From Acetanaerobacterium elongatum (GTDB lineage: Bacteria; Bacillota; Clostridia; Oscillospirales; Ruminococcaceae), in contig NZ_FNID01000016.1 of the NCBI RefSeq assembly GCF_900103835.1, forward strand, positions 1-64,000: a stretch of DNA of 64,000 nucleotides. The letters run 5' to 3'. The notes beneath the pieces are model-generated. The model ran no database searches. It saw nothing but the letters and a program-made list of their open reading frames with translations, and was not told where the DNA came from. Of this stretch, positions 44,239-51,462 are shown piece after piece. The position numbers were made by a program, and so were the translations under genes. Within the stretch, counting starts at the first letter, position 1; every line of letters begins with the position of its first letter.

Positions 44239-44334
44239 TAGGAGTAATAATACCACAACATTTTGTAATTATTAATTTGTAATTAAAAACCGCTGCCATT
44301 ATTTTTATTGACATTCATTATTGGAGGAACCACT

Positions 44335-47300
44335 ATGGCAAATTATAAGCATGTTCAAAAGGCCGTTTCTCTCATCGCAACCTTAGTATTGTTATTGACA
44401 ACGGTTTTCTCACCGGTATATGCGGCTGAACCAGAACCGCCGGTAACCGGTGCTGTACCCGGTATTTCTGCTGTTAAGGGGGCCGCAACGCTAAGCGCAG
44501 CCATGCCGGAGGAGCTGATCGGCGCGTCGGCGGTAGCTTTAGGATGGTCAGCCATAGATGAGGGCGGCACCGATTATGCCTCAGTAACCCCCGGCAGTAC
44601 AGCTATCAGCTTCTCTTTAGGGGAAGTTCCTGTTGTTACAGGTGATACAAAGGTTCATATCAGTATCGGTGCGGATGTACCAGTGGGCAGGTATAAAATT
44701 ACCGCAAGGGATATCACCTCCGCTGTAAATAGCGGTAATGCCGCAGATGTGGTTGTATTGGATATAGTAGCACCAGCTATAGGTACTTCTACCGCAATTA
44801 GCGGTATCGACTCAAACTATCTGATTAACGATAAACTTGGAACGGTTACCATCACAGTAGCTGCCGCATCCGGCAGCGCTAAGCCTTCAGGAACCGTTGA
44901 GCTCTTTTGCCAACGTCCCGGCGAATCGAAAGCGAAGGTTATTCCCGGGGGCTCTGCAGTATTGGCAGACGGTGCTGCAAGCATAGCAAAGGATCTAGTT
45001 TCCTTTGATAAAGTGGGCAACTATGTGTTTTCAGCGGGTTTTATCCCGAACGACAGCTCCGTATTTTCAGCCAGTACAAGCGCGCCGGTTGAAGTTTCTG
45101 TTTACGACCCAACAATTAATATCATTAGTATCTCCCCAATTTCCGCCGAGAAGGTTTCAAATACCGATTCGAAGTTCAATCAGAGTGCTATCACTGTCAG
45201 TACAGGCACTAATAGTTTAACAGCAAAGATTACGGTGAATAAACCGCTTAACTCGTTCGTTGCAACCGGAACCGACCGTGAAAAGCTTGGCAGTCAGCAA
45301 TGGATCGGTCTGCTTGTTACCACCAATGTGGAAGTAAGCCAACTGTATTATGGCACCACCCAGGCCGAGATGTTACCGCTCGGGGAATCCGCTGTTCAGG
45401 AGGCGGCCAATCTGGGCGTGCAAGGGTCTAAAACCTTTGTAATCTGGACAAAGAGCTCCGATTACACGGCGAAAAACGGCTATAGCATCTCGCGGTTTAT
45501 TAGAAACGGCGCAAAGGGAACTGTTGCCGAAATAAAGCTAGAATATGTCGATTTCGTTGCTCCTGCCATTACCTGCGCATATGCAGCAAAATCAAACGCT
45601 GACGCGCCAATTGCGGTTTCACAGCAACCGCAACCCTATAAATTAAATCAAAACGCGGTAACGGTTTGGTCCAACACCTATGTAAAAAACTATCTGAATA
45701 TCAATATTCAAGCGAATTCTTCATTGCAGGACTATAAACTTGCCGGCGGCGATGAGGGCAAATGGGTAGGCATTTTGGTTACTACCGATGTGAACGTAAC
45801 CGATCTCTACCTTGGCAGTAGCAGCGTTGCGGAAGGGATGAAGAAACTAACCCAAACCGATATCAATACTGCCAAAGCCTATGGTGCCACCGGGGATAAA
45901 ACCTTCCTTATATGGGTTAAAACGCAGGAATTTAAAGACGGAAGCGCCGCCCGATATATCAAAAACGGTGAGTATGGTACCGTAGTGAAGTTAAATTTGA
46001 ACTATATCCCACCTGCTATTGGTACGGTACATGTCTCGGCGATAACAAAAGAGCGGGTAACCGATGCAAGCAGTAAGCAGAACCAGTCAACGCTTTCTGT
46101 ATTGAATACCTCTTATAACAGCGGTAACAAGGTCAACACCGCCATTACCGCAAACGGCAGACTGGAGGTATTCGGTTATGACTTTGAATATAACTGGAAG
46201 CCAAAGGCGGGCAGATGGATTGGCCTGCTGGTTACTACTACCGATACGGATGTAACCGATCTATACTATGGCACCAGCCCGAATTTGATGAGCGCACTTA
46301 CCGCTGAGGATATTCACAGAGCCGTAGCATTGGGCGCAACCGGTACAAAAACCTTTGTGCTGTGGCTGGATGCCGATGAGCTGAAAGAGAACGGTACTGT
46401 AGCACGCTACATAAAGAACGGTGAAAACGGTATTCCCAAAGAACTGAACTTTACCTTAATTCATAACCATATTATCATTCAGGATGACTCAGAGGTATAT
46501 ACCCTGGATAAGGGCAGCGTTGAAGCGGCTGCTTATACCAATGTAACAGATGCCAAAGTTCGGTTTACCGCTGTTGCGAAGGACGACTCCGGAAAGCTGA
46601 TATCAGCGAATAGTTTTATCGCTATGCAAACTGCGGCCCCCGTATCTGTTGTGAACGAAAAAGCGACAATAAAATATACCGCGCTCAAGGAGGGCAAGGT
46701 AACCGTCACCGCAGAACTGGTGGATGCAAGCGGGCGCTCGTTTTACCCGCCCATCAAGGAAGCCTGCAATCTGAGCATTAAGCCTTCAGCGGTTGTCGAT
46801 TCTTTGGATATAGTTGACAATGTAGTTGTGGATAAGCTTACGCTGGATAAGGGTGTTGCTGCAGATGGAACGGTTTATTATGGCAGCAAGAAGCTTCAAG
46901 CAATGGTGTATACCAAGCCCGATTCGGAGCACTTTAAGGCGGTAACATGGAAGTCCTCCAATGAAAAGGTTGCCAAGGTGGATGCCGACGGATTGGTGAC
47001 AGCAGTGGGTGCAGGCAGCGCTGATATTATCGCAACCACGAATTACAAGAATGCATCGGGCAGTTATATTTCAAAAAAAGTAGTTGTTACCGTAAAACAA
47101 CATCTTACGGGCGCATCACTCTCAATGGGAGTCAACAAAAACAGCGACGGACAGTATATTCTTATCAAGGGCGACAATAAGCTCGGTGCTTCGGTTCCAA
47201 CCAAACTTATGCTTAGCGACGCGGCATCAAAGGATGTTGCGGTTAACTATACCAGCAGTGATAACAATATTGTTAAGGTTAGCGGTGCAGGGGTAATTAC

Positions 47301-50300
47301 CGCTGTTGGTGCGGGAGAGGCGACGGTTACCGCCGCAGTAAACGAAAAGGTTGCCCCAGGCGACTTAAAACTGAAAAAGCTGTTTGAAACCCAGATAAGA
47401 GTTAAGGTTTACGGCAGTCTTGTCAATACCATAGCATTGCAAAAGGAAGGAAACGGTTGCCTGCTTAACGATAGTACGGTTGCACTTGATTACCTGAACA
47501 GCAATAAGTTCACACTCAGTGCAGCAGTGAATGAGAACACCTATAATGCAGTTGCGTTCTCCTATTCCGGCCCCAGCAGTATTTATGTAAGGGATAACGG
47601 CAATAACACCGCAACAATAACGGTTCTTGATTCAGCAAGCGGTATGGGAACCATTACCGCCCGTGCGCTTGACGGCAGTAACAAACAGGCGAGCGTTAAG
47701 GTTACAACCGGCGGAATTCCCGTGGCGGCGGTAACAATTGCTTCCGGCAAAGTAACGGTTGGCGTTGGTAAAAGCGTAAGCCTTACCGCTATGATTACTC
47801 CGCCGGAGGCCACCAATAAAACACTTAAGTGGGTATCTTCCAACCCTGACTATGTAACAGTGGATCAAAAGGGCGTTTTAAAAGGTATACAGCCGACGAC
47901 AGGTGATGAAAGCATAAAGGTTACTGCTTATGCAACAGACGGCAGCGGTTGTTCTGCCCAAGTAGATGTCAAGGTATCAGCGGCTACATCAAGTGTGGCG
48001 ATTACTGCGGTAGAGGATCTAGGCAAAGGTATAATCTACATCAGTAAGAACGACACGGTGTCGGTTGACCTTAAGGATACTCCTGTTGCGGTTCAGCTTA
48101 AGCCAGCGCCTATCCCTGATTCTGCGTCGAAGGAGGTTATTTGGAAGTCCTCCGACAGTAAGGTTGCGTCTGTGGGACCAGACGGAGCAGTGACGGTTAA
48201 TGCAAAGGGAAAAGCAACCATTACCGCCACAACAACCGATGGTTCAGGAAAATCAGATACGATTCAATTGGTGGCAACCCAAAAGGTTTATGGCATTCTT
48301 CTTAAAGAGCCTGCAAAATCGGAGCATGATTTGAACGGCAATGTGTTGGCCAAGTCCGGTACGTCCGTTACTCCGGCTGTTACCTTTAACAACGGTACGG
48401 CTGCTACGGCCCCCGCCAATTCAGGCTATAAGCTCGAAGTAGCTGCCATACCCGAAGATTCCGGCTCAACCTACATAACCATAAGCAAAGACGGCAAGTC
48501 CTTTATCGTTGCCCCCAATGCATTGCCAGGCTGCTATTTCCAAATCAAAGCCGCTTCCACCGAAAATACCGGCATAGTATCACAACCGCTTACCTTTAAG
48601 ACAGTTAGCGCCAAGGGTGAGCTAACCGCGGTTGAAGTAAAGGTTCCTACCTCCGTTTATAAAGATCAAAGCAACAATAATATTCTTCTTGTGGGCAAAA
48701 GCGTAACACTTTCTGCATTGTATAACCAAGGAAAATCTCTACCAAGCGGCATAACCTGCGCATGGAATGCCTACGAAGCCGACAATACCGGCGCATATAC
48801 ATCCGGGCAATCTGAAATGAAGAACCTTATTACAGCAACCGGCGTGCTCGTTGGTAAGGATAGCGGGAATATCGGCAAGTGCATTGCAGTAGAAGTTACC
48901 GCCAAACAGGGCAGCAGTTCTCCCGTATCCAATCATGCTATTTTTAAGGTGTACAGCCCTGTGCAGGGAATGAAGATTAATCTGCCCGTTAATGGCGGAA
49001 AGCTTGCATATGGCGGTACTACCCGTGCGGTATGGGTGTGCAAAAACGGCGAGTTGGGTGATAAGGGTTACTGCCGCAATGTGGTTTGGACAACCTCCAA
49101 CCCATTAGTCGCCGATGTTCAGCCCGATGCGGACGGCTGTAACATTATAGCCGTAGGCAAAGGTACCGCCACAATTACCGTTACTGCCCTCGACGGCAGC
49201 GGTGCAAAGGCCACAGCAACGGTAACGGTAGGGCCAGCCACAGTACCGGTTAACAAGCTGGAGTTAAACTACACCAAGGTTGCTTTAAAACCCAAAGAGT
49301 CACTGGATGTAACCGCCGTACTGTCGGCCAAACCGCCGATACCCGGAGCAAGTATTACCGACAACGGCGTTATTTGGTCAATTAAATCTGCTGCTAAAGG
49401 CAAGGATATCGCAAACTTCGGTAAGTTGGATGACGGTACGCCTGTTTTGCAAATAATAATGCCGAGCGGCACGAATCCTCGTACCATTAAGGTATACGCA
49501 GGGAATGACTGCGGAACAGTCACACTTACCGCCAAGGCCAAAGACGGCAATGGTGCTTTTAAATCCATGGAGGTGGTTGTGGCAGATACCGGAAATATTA
49601 GCGGTATCGCTCTCAGCGCTCCAAAGAGCACAGCAGCTGTTATCAGCGGCGATTCTGTAACCAATGGCACACCGATATTACTGAGAGGCAAGAGCCTGAA
49701 GCTTAATGCACAGATTACGCCTGCGAATGCCATTAATAAAACATTGTCTTATAGTGTAACGGATATTGACGGAAAGGCAGTAAGCGGCGTTACCGTAGAT
49801 GCGGCGGGAAATGTAAAGGCAGATAACAAGGCCGGTGCAGGGTATATTCTGGTAAAAGCAGCTGCCACCGACGGCTCGGGCAAAACCGACACTATCAAGC
49901 TTTATGTTGCCCCGGCGGCAACCGCAATTCAATTAAGCCCTGAAAATCCATCTGTCAAACCGGGAGAATCACTAATCCTTGTGGCAAACGGAGAGAATTG
50001 CGATAAAACCGCCTGCAGCATCAAATGGGTTTCACGCAGTCCAAGCATCGCCTGGTTTACAAACAATATTACAAAAAGCGGCGAGCAGAACTATCTTACT
50101 ATCGCTAAAGATGTTGGAACTACTGCTTCGGTAACGATAGATGTCTGCGCAACCGACGGAAGCGGAAAGCTAAAGACCATCACCGTAAAGCTGGGCGCGC
50201 CGGTTGAGAAAATCATGATCAGCAATTCCGCCTGTAAGAACCCCACCTTGCAGGATGGAGCGTGCAGCACGATACCTGGTGATAGCTATCCTCAAATACT

Positions 50301-51462
50301 GCTGCAGGGTAAAAGCATGCAGTTTACCGCTTCAGTTACGCCCAGCAGCGCACCCAATAAATCAATTGTATATTCGGTAGAACCGGTAGATAATGCAGGG
50401 CAAACCCATTTCGAATTTAATGGAGTAACCATAGATAAAAAGAGCGGTTTACTAAAGGTAACCGCACCCACCGCGAAAGGGGCAACGGTTTACCAAGGAT
50501 TTGTAAAGGTAACGGCAAGGGCAACCGACAAGGTTACCGCTGCTGAAAGCAATCCTATTTACGTTTACATAGCACCGGTAACCAAAAAGGTAGCGATACT
50601 TCCGGCAACCTTAACAGGTGAGCCCAACCGGTTTTATGAGCTTTCCGCTTTAGCAGCAGGGGCAGGGGATTGTTCCGGTGCAGTTGCTTGGAAATCCTCC
50701 AATCCATCCGTTGCAAGCTTAAATAAGGCTGTTACTTTTTCGGGCCGCGATTCTGTTATACTTACCATTGCTGCTAACGCCGCAAGTGTTAAGAGTGTTG
50801 TTATTACTGCAACCATGCTCGACGGAACCAATGTTTCAGCAAGCTTAACGGTGAATATTGGAAAACGTGTTACAGAGGTAACCATTAAACCGACAGCTCC
50901 TGTTATCCATAATGGCTCCACTCTGCAGCTCAGTGCCGAAACCTACCCTGCAATACCGGTTACTCCCGGCGTAAATTGGGAGATTACCAAGGGCAAGGAA
51001 CTGGGTGTTGCCATTGACGACAAAGGTAAGCTTTCAACTCAGAAAATGGTCAAGAACGGAACCATTACCGTTGTAGCGTATGCCAAAGACAACAACGGTG
51101 CTTTAGACATGCTCGATTTGGATGTAAGGCAATATGTCACCTCAGTTGCAATCCTAAAGGATGAGAAACCTGTAAAATCAAACGTTGAGATTCTATCTAC
51201 CGATAAGAAAGGTATCCAGTTTACCGCAAATGCTTCCGGGCCATCTGCTGATTACAAGCCGTTTGATAATACTGTCACATGGCTGCTGAGTACAGCCGAC
51301 CAGAAATATGCGGCGGTAGACCAAACCGGGCTTGTCACCCTGACTCCGGAAGGAACAAAGGTCACCTCCAACGGCAGGGTTCTTACAGTTACAGCAAAAG
51401 CAAATGACGGTTCCGGTAAATTCGCTGCCGTAAAGGTAGTTATTAAATTTCAAAAAGCCTAA
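44335..51462 (+). CDS. Giant secreted Ig-like (Big_2) repeat protein, 2,375 residues
   Basis: A secreted, surface-type protein. The signal peptide (MANYKHVQKA to VYA, cleavage near 30) is clear. Residues 155-262 look like an Ig-like domain. Residues 263-709 hold three copies of an unassigned 140-150-residue domain, each with a W-IGLLVTT core and a RYIKNG-type end. From about 826 to the end are 13-15 Big_2 domains, with strands such as WKSSNEKVAKVDADGLVTA and repeated DGSGK turns. Big_2 proteins often mediate adhesion or wall binding. There is no LPXTG, SLH, choline-binding or LysM anchor, and the chain ends in KVVIKFQKA. ATG 44335 has GGAGG 7 nt upstream. It is a single gene between two terminator/promoter regions. 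Confidence 0.9.
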   Translation: MANYKHVQKAVSLIATLVLLLTTVFSPVYAAEPEPPVTGAVPGISAVKGAATLSAAMPEELIGASAVALGWSAIDEGGTDYASVTPGSTAISFSLGEVPVVTGDTKVHISIGADVPVGRYKITARDITSAVNSGNAADVVVLDIVAPAIGTSTAISGIDSNYLINDKLGTVTITVAAASGSAKPSGTVELFCQRPGESKAKVIPGGSAVLADGAASIAKDLVSFDKVGNYVFSAGFIPNDSSVFSASTSAPVEVSVYDPTINIISISPISAEKVSNTDSKFNQSAITVSTGTNSLTAKITVNKPLNSFVATGTDREKLGSQQWIGLLVTTNVEVSQLYYGTTQAEMLPLGESAVQEAANLGVQGSKTFVIWTKSSDYTAKNGYSISRFIRNGAKGTVAEIKLEYVDFVAPAITCAYAAKSNADAPIAVSQQPQPYKLNQNAVTVWSNTYVKNYLNINIQANSSLQDYKLAGGDEGKWVGILVTTDVNVTDLYLGSSSVAEGMKKLTQTDINTAKAYGATGDKTFLIWVKTQEFKDGSAARYIKNGEYGTVVKLNLNYIPPAIGTVHVSAITKERVTDASSKQNQSTLSVLNTSYNSGNKVNTAITANGRLEVFGYDFEYNWKPKAGRWIGLLVTTTDTDVTDLYYGTSPNLMSALTAEDIHRAVALGATGTKTFVLWLDADELKENGTVARYIKNGENGIPKELNFTLIHNHIIIQDDSEVYTLDKGSVEAAAYTNVTDAKVRFTAVAKDDSGKLISANSFIAMQTAAPVSVVNEKATIKYTALKEGKVTVTAELVDASGRSFYPPIKEACNLSIKPSAVVDSLDIVDNVVVDKLTLDKGVAADGTVYYGSKKLQAMVYTKPDSEHFKAVTWKSSNEKVAKVDADGLVTAVGAGSADIIATTNYKNASGSYISKKVVVTVKQHLTGASLSMGVNKNSDGQYILIKGDNKLGASVPTKLMLSDAASKDVAVNYTSSDNNIVKVSGAGVITAVGAGEATVTAAVNEKVAPGDLKLKKLFETQIRVKVYGSLVNTIALQKEGNGCLLNDSTVALDYLNSNKFTLSAAVNENTYNAVAFSYSGPSSIYVRDNGNNTATITVLDSASGMGTITARALDGSNKQASVKVTTGGIPVAAVTIASGKVTVGVGKSVSLTAMITPPEATNKTLKWVSSNPDYVTVDQKGVLKGIQPTTGDESIKVTAYATDGSGCSAQVDVKVSAATSSVAITAVEDLGKGIIYISKNDTVSVDLKDTPVAVQLKPAPIPDSASKEVIWKSSDSKVASVGPDGAVTVNAKGKATITATTTDGSGKSDTIQLVATQKVYGILLKEPAKSEHDLNGNVLAKSGTSVTPAVTFNNGTAATAPANSGYKLEVAAIPEDSGSTYITISKDGKSFIVAPNALPGCYFQIKAASTENTGIVSQPLTFKTVSAKGELTAVEVKVPTSVYKDQSNNNILLVGKSVTLSALYNQGKSLPSGITCAWNAYEADNTGAYTSGQSEMKNLITATGVLVGKDSGNIGKCIAVEVTAKQGSSSPVSNHAIFKVYSPVQGMKINLPVNGGKLAYGGTTRAVWVCKNGELGDKGYCRNVVWTTSNPLVADVQPDADGCNIIAVGKGTATITVTALDGSGAKATATVTVGPATVPVNKLELNYTKVALKPKESLDVTAVLSAKPPIPGASITDNGVIWSIKSAAKGKDIANFGKLDDGTPVLQIIMPSGTNPRTIKVYAGNDCGTVTLTAKAKDGNGAFKSMEVVVADTGNISGIALSAPKSTAAVISGDSVTNGTPILLRGKSLKLNAQITPANAINKTLSYSVTDIDGKAVSGVTVDAAGNVKADNKAGAGYILVKAAATDGSGKTDTIKLYVAPAATAIQLSPENPSVKPGESLILVANGENCDKTACSIKWVSRSPSIAWFTNNITKSGEQNYLTIAKDVGTTASVTIDVCATDGSGKLKTITVKLGAPVEKIMISNSACKNPTLQDGACSTIPGDSYPQILLQGKSMQFTASVTPSSAPNKSIVYSVEPVDNAGQTHFEFNGVTIDKKSGLLKVTAPTAKGATVYQGFVKVTARATDKVTAAESNPIYVYIAPVTKKVAILPATLTGEPNRFYELSALAAGAGDCSGAVAWKSSNPSVASLNKAVTFSGRDSVILTIAANAASVKSVVITATMLDGTNVSASLTVNIGKRVTEVTIKPTAPVIHNGSTLQLSAETYPAIPVTPGVNWEITKGKELGVAIDDKGKLSTQKMVKNGTITVVAYAKDNNGALDMLDLDVRQYVTSVAILKDEKPVKSNVEILSTDKKGIQFTANASGPSADYKPFDNTVTWLLSTADQKYAAVDQTGLVTLTPEGTKVTSNGRVLTVTAKANDGSGKFAAVKVVIKFQKA

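What the first reader, a model, noticed from the sequence alone, without database searches (positions are those of the whole stretch)
45133..46461. Triplicated unassigned 140-150-residue domain in the giant secreted protein
Residues about 263-709 hold three tandem copies with shared W(I/V)G(I/L)LVTT, (V/L)xDLYxG-like and RYIKNG elements, between Ig-like parts. They do not look like Big_2 or other Ig domains. They may be the binding or catalytic head of the protein.
Basis: seen in the sequence. Interest (0 to 1): 0.55.

Follow-up and report, generated by a model that had tools for sequence, protein, structure and literature searches.

The report
Domain shared with phage head-fibre-like proteins
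A bacterium's giant secreted protein carries three copies of an unnamed domain that also ends a small protein encoded next to the shell gene in many phages, which suggests a shared stick-to-surfaces module rather than an enzyme.

Summary
P1 (2375 aa, window 44335-51462) has three tandem copies of a ~150-aa domain (pairwise Smith-Waterman 204-220; shuffle maximum 61). None has a significant Pfam, NCBIfam or PDB match. A paralogue in the genome has five more.

The eight-copy profile also hits a 207-aa prophage protein in the same genome (E 2.1e-7), encoded directly after the major capsid gene. Its first ~70 residues resemble head-fibre/decoration proteins; the rest is this domain. The same protein is in 26 IMG/VR loci. 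A phage-only profile finds P1 (8.5e-14), the paralogue and three other bacterial proteins, two with SLH repeats, and none of 1000 shuffles. In phages the domain is an optional C-terminal addition: of the 80 best base-bearing loci (of 235), 64 have the base only and 16 base plus this domain.

The predicted fold is Ig-like with a helix, by weak matches. No charged residue is conserved in 80% or more of the eight copies, so binding is likelier than catalysis. Most likely an undescribed adhesive display domain: a new member of a known kind. Ligand unknown.

The parts
44335..51462 (+). P1, giant secreted protein, 2375 aa; signal-peptide-like start (residues 1 to about 30, by eye); no SLH or other anchor among the Pfam matches
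   Evidence: ribosome-binding site GGAGG at 44323-44327 seen
44842..45102 (+). Big_3_5-like Ig domain before the repeats (residues 170-256), below Pfam's cut-off
   Evidence: E 4.7e-6, 27.5 bits against cut-off 35.5
45109..45555 (+). copy 1 of the unnamed domain (149 aa)
   Evidence: E 1.1e-56 to profile A1, which was built with it; phage-only profile i-E 2.7e-4
45559..46011 (+). copy 2 of the unnamed domain (151 aa); AlphaFold model pLDDT 84, pTM 0.81
   Evidence: phage-only profile i-E 2.1e-3
46012..46467 (+). copy 3 of the unnamed domain (152 aa)
   Evidence: phage-only profile i-E 1.5e-6
46870..51459 (+). Big_2 array, limits approximate: starts at the best-scoring stretch and runs to the end of the protein (10 Big_2 stretches pass in the whole protein)

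Best explanation
The three copies are an unnamed, probably Ig-like domain that works as a non-catalytic, surface-displayed binding module. In this bacterium it sits in tandem near the N-terminus of a secreted protein with a long Big_2 stalk (P1) and of its paralogue (P2, five copies). In other bacteria of the phylum it sits on SLH-bearing proteins. In phages it is the optional C-terminal part of a protein encoded beside the capsid gene, whose ~70-aa N-terminal base resembles head-fibre and decoration proteins and presumably binds the capsid as a trimer. Shown: repeats, homology to the phage domain, gene order, presence or absence of the domain on the same base, resemblance of the base to solved head-fibre/decoration proteins, lack of conserved charged residues. 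Inferred: that the phage protein is on the virion, that both settings use the domain for adhesion, most likely to carbohydrate or another cell-surface ligand, and that tandem copies raise avidity. The direction of transfer between phage and bacterium is not resolved.
For: Eight-copy bacterial profile finds the prophage protein (E 2.1e-7); hhalign against it probability 94.5%, E 8e-8, 91 columns. Phage-only profile (21 sequences) finds P1 8.5e-14, P2 3.4e-25, L052 4.7e-16, L055 5e-11, L068 8.4e-30 and 0 of 1000 shuffles. Hhalign of phage against the eight copies gives probability 98.1%, E 8e-14, against 0.3% for a Big_2 control. Among nine head-module genes used as queries, the capsid gene is the nearest upstream in 25 of 26 IMG/VR loci and the gp6-like gene the nearest downstream in 23 of 26. 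The base matches decoration protein gp45 of phage B2 (1e-5) and phi29 head fibre 3qc7 (0.0026) in the PDB, PF11133 head fibre in 14 of 17 members (E up to 1, best 5e-6) and a head-fibre PHROG in 9 of 17. Base only in 64 of 80 and base plus this domain in 16 of 80 loci; genes too short for base plus domain in the same slot in four named phages. No D/E/H/K/R/C column at 80% or more in the eight copies. [quoted passage not shown] PMC10385173, passages).
Against: No ligand or binding site is shown, and the virion location is inferred. The fold matches are weak (best VIA Z 5.5 for the phage model, 3.6 for the window model). Residues conserved across the 32 sequences are mostly of the fold-forming kind and no shared binding site stands out. 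The base profile also matches three depolymerase chains weakly (E 0.029-0.073), so the base motif may be a general trimer-forming piece and not proof of a head fibre. A purely structural spacer role fits the same data. P1 has no recognised anchor, so how it would stay on the cell is unknown.
Confidence: 0.62

Rival explanations
1. Structural spacer: the domain is a rigid or stabilising beta-sandwich unit that only lengthens the stalk or the capsid spike and binds nothing itself.
For: Residues conserved across the family are mostly of the fold-forming type and no D/E/H/K/R/C column reaches 80% in the eight copies; the copies are tandem and flanked by Big-type repeats.
Against: In phages it is the C-terminal end of a small protein and not a linker; in L055 it is the C-terminal end too. 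P1 and P2 already have long Big_2 arrays for length.
Confidence: 0.2
2. Divergent member of a known family: Shr-like haemoglobin-interacting domain (PF07550), i.e. haem or haemoprotein capture.
For: Subthreshold PF07550 matches in 4 of 17 phage proteins (best 0.0092) and 3 of 22 domain sequences (best 0.0032).
Against: Hhalign against an alignment of three PF07550 matches from other genomes gave probability 0.2% (a small alignment, so a weak test). None of the three window copies matches PF07550. No haemoglobin-interacting chain among the PDB matches (none; one, unrelated).
Confidence: 0.05
3. Catalytic head: the domain is an enzyme module.
For: Only its N-terminal position on a long stalk, and the absence of a named match.
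Against: No D/E/H/K/R/C column is conserved in 80% or more of the eight copies; relatives are encoded beside capsid genes. The 21 phage sequences taken alone do keep thirteen such columns, so an activity confined to phages is not excluded.
Confidence: 0.05

Closest known systems
phi29 head fibre gp8.5 (PF11133, PDB 3qc7) and phage B2 decoration protein gp45 (PDB 9d82)
   Same: The phage carrier's residues 29-69 and 34-67 match them by profile (E 0.0026 and 1e-5); B2 gp45 is a capsid-bound homotrimer (PMC11654681, passages).
   Different: The match covers only the base, not this domain, and the window protein P1 shows no PF11133 match at E up to 5.
Hoc of phage T4 and other Ig-like capsid decoration proteins
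   Same: Ig-like domains displayed on a capsid, with attachment to bacteria or mucin glycans reported (PMC10385173 and PMC7602432, passages).
   Different: Only a chance-level structural match to one Hoc (BFVD rank 42, E 0.35) and no Hoc among the rows shown; no binding has been shown for the present domain.
Giant Big_2 and SLH surface proteins of bacteria
   Same: P1 and P2 carry Big_2 arrays (10 and 8 stretches); L052 and L068 carry three SLH repeats.
   Different: The repeated domain itself is not Big_2 and is rare: 1 of 247 genomes of the family searched, the window's own.
Big_2-like insertion domain of the phi29 major capsid protein
   Same: A published precedent for an Ig-like capsid domain with BLAST homologues among SLH-domain and other bacterial proteins (PMC11476376, passages).
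   Different: A different domain, inserted in the coat protein and not on a head-fibre-like base.

Membership tests
Big_2 (PF02368) | profile match of the repeated domain above Pfam's cut-off | tested here: not met
   none for the three copies cut out; 22 members: not among the 16 families listed at E up to 1; hhalign 0.2%
Phage head fibre (PF11133) | Pfam match above cut-off of the phage carrier | tested here: inconclusive
   prophage protein 15.4 bits against 24.6; 14 of 17 viral members match at E up to 1, best 5e-6, bits not listed
Phage head fibre / decoration protein | gene beside the major capsid gene in the head module | tested here: met
   25 of 26 viral loci (the other contig starts 110 bases before the gene), plus L015, L053, L054
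Phage head fibre / decoration protein | present on the capsid surface, usually as a trimer | not testable with these tools
   only similarity of the base to solved capsid proteins
Shr-like haemoglobin-interacting domain (PF07550) | profile match above cut-off | tested here: inconclusive
   13.6 bits against 22.3 for the prophage protein; best E 0.0032 in 3 of 22 members; hhalign 0.2%
Ig-like fold | structural match well above background | tested here: inconclusive
   Foldseek no E <= 0.001; VIA Z 3.6 (2yz8, 81 aligned, 3.6 A) and 5.5 (3hbz, 84 aligned, 3.0 A)
SLH-anchored surface proteins | SLH repeats | tested here: not met
   no SLH among the Pfam matches of P1 and P2; relatives L052 and L068 have three each

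The most novel reading that the evidence does not exclude
A mobile adhesive domain shared by phage capsids and bacterial cell surfaces: the phage copy and the host's giant fibres recognise the same ligand, or each other, so that virions dock on the matrix that the host itself builds. The window's genome holds both forms (eight surface copies and one prophage copy).
Probability: 0.18. Interest if true: 0.72.

Novelty: new member of a known kind. Interest (0 to 1): 0.47.

Why it matters
It points to a domain family that the profile libraries searched here do not name, and it links giant bacterial surface proteins to phage head-module proteins by sequence, not only by a common fold. Because the phage gene exists with and without the domain in the same slot, a role in virion adhesion can be tested directly by comparing natural base-only and base-plus-domain proteins.

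Tried and rejected
Single-protein searches of the domain found nothing in phages, plasmids, genome contigs, viral contigs or 60 relatives besides the own genome; only profiles and then the prophage copy opened the family. L052, L055 and L068 domains as viral-contig queries found no relatives; L038 gave eight loci, most of them known already. Structure searches gave only weak matches; phi29 head-fibre and Shr chains are not among the rows shown, which excludes nothing. PF07550 (haemoglobin-interacting domain) was considered from weak hits and not supported by hhalign, with an alignment of only three sequences. A search of PF07550 in 61 genomes found it in 5 (4 over the cut-off) and not in the window's own. 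Catalysis was considered and disfavoured. That the host's copies came recently from its own prophage was considered and rejected: the eight copies form one clade (100/98) well apart from the phage clade (94/91), with long-branch warnings and a root at the midpoint for drawing only. The organism's name was not determined. The statement that this link was not found in print rests on the paper searches only, in an open-licence library; one paper there reports the parallel case of the phi29 coat domain.

Full report
THE OBSERVATION. The giant protein P1 is encoded at window 44335-51462 + (2375 aa). The 2384-aa listing starts at a TTG; the ATG nine codons later has GGAGG seven bases upstream (stretch printed). 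Three tandem copies of a ~150-aa domain lie at 45109-45555, 45559-46011 and 46012-46467. Pairwise Smith-Waterman scores are 204, 210 and 220; 500 shuffles per pair never exceeded 61. Before them is a Big_3_5-like domain below cut-off, and after them Big_2 domains.

NO NAMED DOMAIN FOUND. None of the three copies has a Pfam match above cut-off. The 22-member family alignment gives no credible NCBIfam family (best E 0.026, one member) or Pfam family (best PF07550, E 0.0032, 3 of 22). Profile searches of the PDB gave nothing with the eight copies and one chance-level match with 22 sequences (E 0.4). Single-sequence tblastn found nothing in 50,697 phage and 72,556 plasmid records.

A PARALOGUE. 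The same genome (G000) encodes P2 (L005:1929-9887 -, 2652 aa), 43.6% identical to P1 over 2156 aligned columns, with five copies. In the tree, copy 1 of P1 pairs with copy 1 of P2 (93/38) and copy 2 of P1 falls with copies 3 and 4 of P2 (98/91); copy 3 of P1 and copy 5 of P2 are in the same weakly supported group (86/61). This fits a common ancestor that already had several copies, but the supports are mixed.

THE PHAGE CONNECTION. The profile of the eight copies (A1) found a ninth place in the genome, G000:C44, E 2.1e-7. It is a 207-aa protein of a prophage (L015:9041-9664 -), directly after the major capsid gene (PF05065, 1.1e-88), with a terminase gene (Pfam) and by eye portal and protease genes upstream and connector genes downstream. 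Its residues 1-68 match PHROG 12102 (unknown function, 6e-26) and weakly a head-fibre family (0.03); its residues from about 75 on align with the domain. A viral-contig scan with that part gave 26 IMG/VR loci with the same protein, 199-239 aa. With nine head-module genes as queries, the nearest upstream gene is the capsid gene in 25 of 26 (the other contig begins 110 bases before the gene), and the nearest downstream one is the gp6-like gene in 23 of 26; gp6 was not detected in L038, L039 and L040.

THE CARRIER LOOKS LIKE A HEAD-FIBRE-TYPE PROTEIN. The alignment of carriers (17 of the 26, chosen to cut redundancy) matches decoration protein gp45 of phage B2 (E 1e-5) and phi29 head fibre 3qc7 (0.0026) in the PDB, and more weakly the 6qvk capsid fibre (0.013), three depolymerase chains (0.029-0.073) and a head-fibre entry (0.16), all through residues within 12-71. 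PF11133 is matched by 14 of 17 (E up to 1, best 5e-6) and head-fibre PHROGs by 9 and 3 of 17. The prophage's own copy is below Pfam's cut-off (15.4 against 24.6 bits). The depolymerase matches warn that the base motif may be a general trimer-forming piece.

AN OPTIONAL C-TERMINAL DOMAIN. Four named phages (Javan630, phi1605 and two from human faeces) have a 74-aa (three) or 109-aa (one) gene in that slot, too short for base plus domain. A scan with the base gave 235 loci, of which the tool kept the best 80: 64 end after the base (69-77 aa counted from the match), 16 continue into this domain, and none carries another addition. The 80 are the closest relatives of the query, so the shares are not those of phages at large.

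INDEPENDENT RECIPROCAL TEST. A profile built from 21 phage sequences only, with no P1 or P2 copy, finds P1 (8.5e-14), P2 (3.4e-25) and three other bacterial proteins, at the expected residues, and none of 1000 shuffled proteins at E 10 or less. Single copies are weak on their own (P1: i-E 2.7e-4, 2.1e-3, 1.5e-6). Hhalign of phage against the eight copies gives probability 98.1%, E 8e-14, with 0.3% for a Big_2 control.

OTHER BACTERIAL CARRIERS. L052 (G451, another family of the phylum): 1917 aa, three SLH, Big_2 and other domains. L068 (G889, same order): 1004 aa, three SLH. L055 (Eubacterium sp. RGIG9300, water-deer rumen): 881 aa, domain at the C-terminus. In none of the three does a Pfam family above cut-off cover the domain; in L055 a chance-level hit (E 0.13) touches it.

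RARITY. Genomes with a match: relatives 1 of 61, class 2 of 391, phylum 3 of 398, class of G451 2 of 46, order 2 of 295, own family 1 of 247, family of G889 1 of 8. These samples overlap, the profile differs (A1, A4, A7 in the rest), and all but searches count G000 itself. Surface-type carriers are G000, G451 and G889; prophage-type are G000, G085, G505 and G835 (for G835 only the 211-aa open frame was seen). Such patchiness fits horizontal spread but does not prove it.

TREE. In a 32-row tree the eight G000 copies form one clade (100/98) and the 21 phage rows another (94/91); the three other surface proteins join at an unresolved fork beside the phage clade. Long branches are flagged and the root is arbitrary. 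The host copies are thus not a recent gift of the resident prophage, and the direction of transfer stays open.

STRUCTURE AND CHEMISTRY. AlphaFold models of copy 2 (pLDDT 84, pTM 0.81, three sequences) and of a phage carrier (pLDDT 82, pTM 0.69; ten-residue blocks from residue 71 on at 90 or more except the last) end in the same order of elements: strands, a helix, then three strands. Best structural matches are Ig-like but weak: Z 3.6 (2yz8, 81 aligned, 3.6 A) and Z 5.5 (3hbz, 84 aligned, 3.0 A); Foldseek found nothing at E 0.001 or less. Across 32 sequences the columns kept in 80% or more are N, Q, L, G, K, W, T, Y, D and A (17 columns). Within the eight G000 copies no D, E, H, K, R or C column reaches 80%; within the 21 closely related phage rows thirteen do, and within the three other surface proteins two do. 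An active site common to the copies is therefore unlikely.

MECHANISM, WITH STATUS. Shown: homology, gene order, modularity. Inferred: the base puts the domain on the capsid; in P1 the Big_2 array is a stalk that presents three copies; both display the domain for adhesion. Published support is by analogy: head fibres and Ig-like decoration proteins are thought to aid attachment (PMC7602432 and PMC10385173, passages read), and Ig-like proteins of gut phages displayed on a capsid raised uptake by epithelial cells (PMC13370021, passages). None of the passages read names this domain.

VERDICT. A real, triplicated, unnamed domain; most likely an adhesive Ig-like module shared with head-fibre-like phage proteins. 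New as a family in the libraries searched, known as a kind.

Noticed in passing
L015:4891-12133 (G000:C44) and L054 (G085:C1): The prophage head module of the window's genome is 95.9% identical over 5732 nt (and 98.5% over 1206 nt) to one in a one-contig 4.8-Mb genome of another family in the class, which suggests recent movement across families.
   Followed up: partly
L005:1929-9887 (-): Paralogue P2 of the giant protein, five copies of the domain and eight Big_2 stretches, on another contig.
   Followed up: yes
L052:4247-10000 and L068:3315-6329: Both SLH proteins have, after the SLH repeats, a similar stretch with repeated short strands that by eye resembles a beta-helix and has no Pfam match.
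   Followed up: no
L055:5394-8039: Rumen Eubacterium protein of 881 aa with a Flg_new_2 (InlB-type) repeat and the domain at its very C-terminus, downstream of what by eye are ABC-transporter genes.
   Followed up: no
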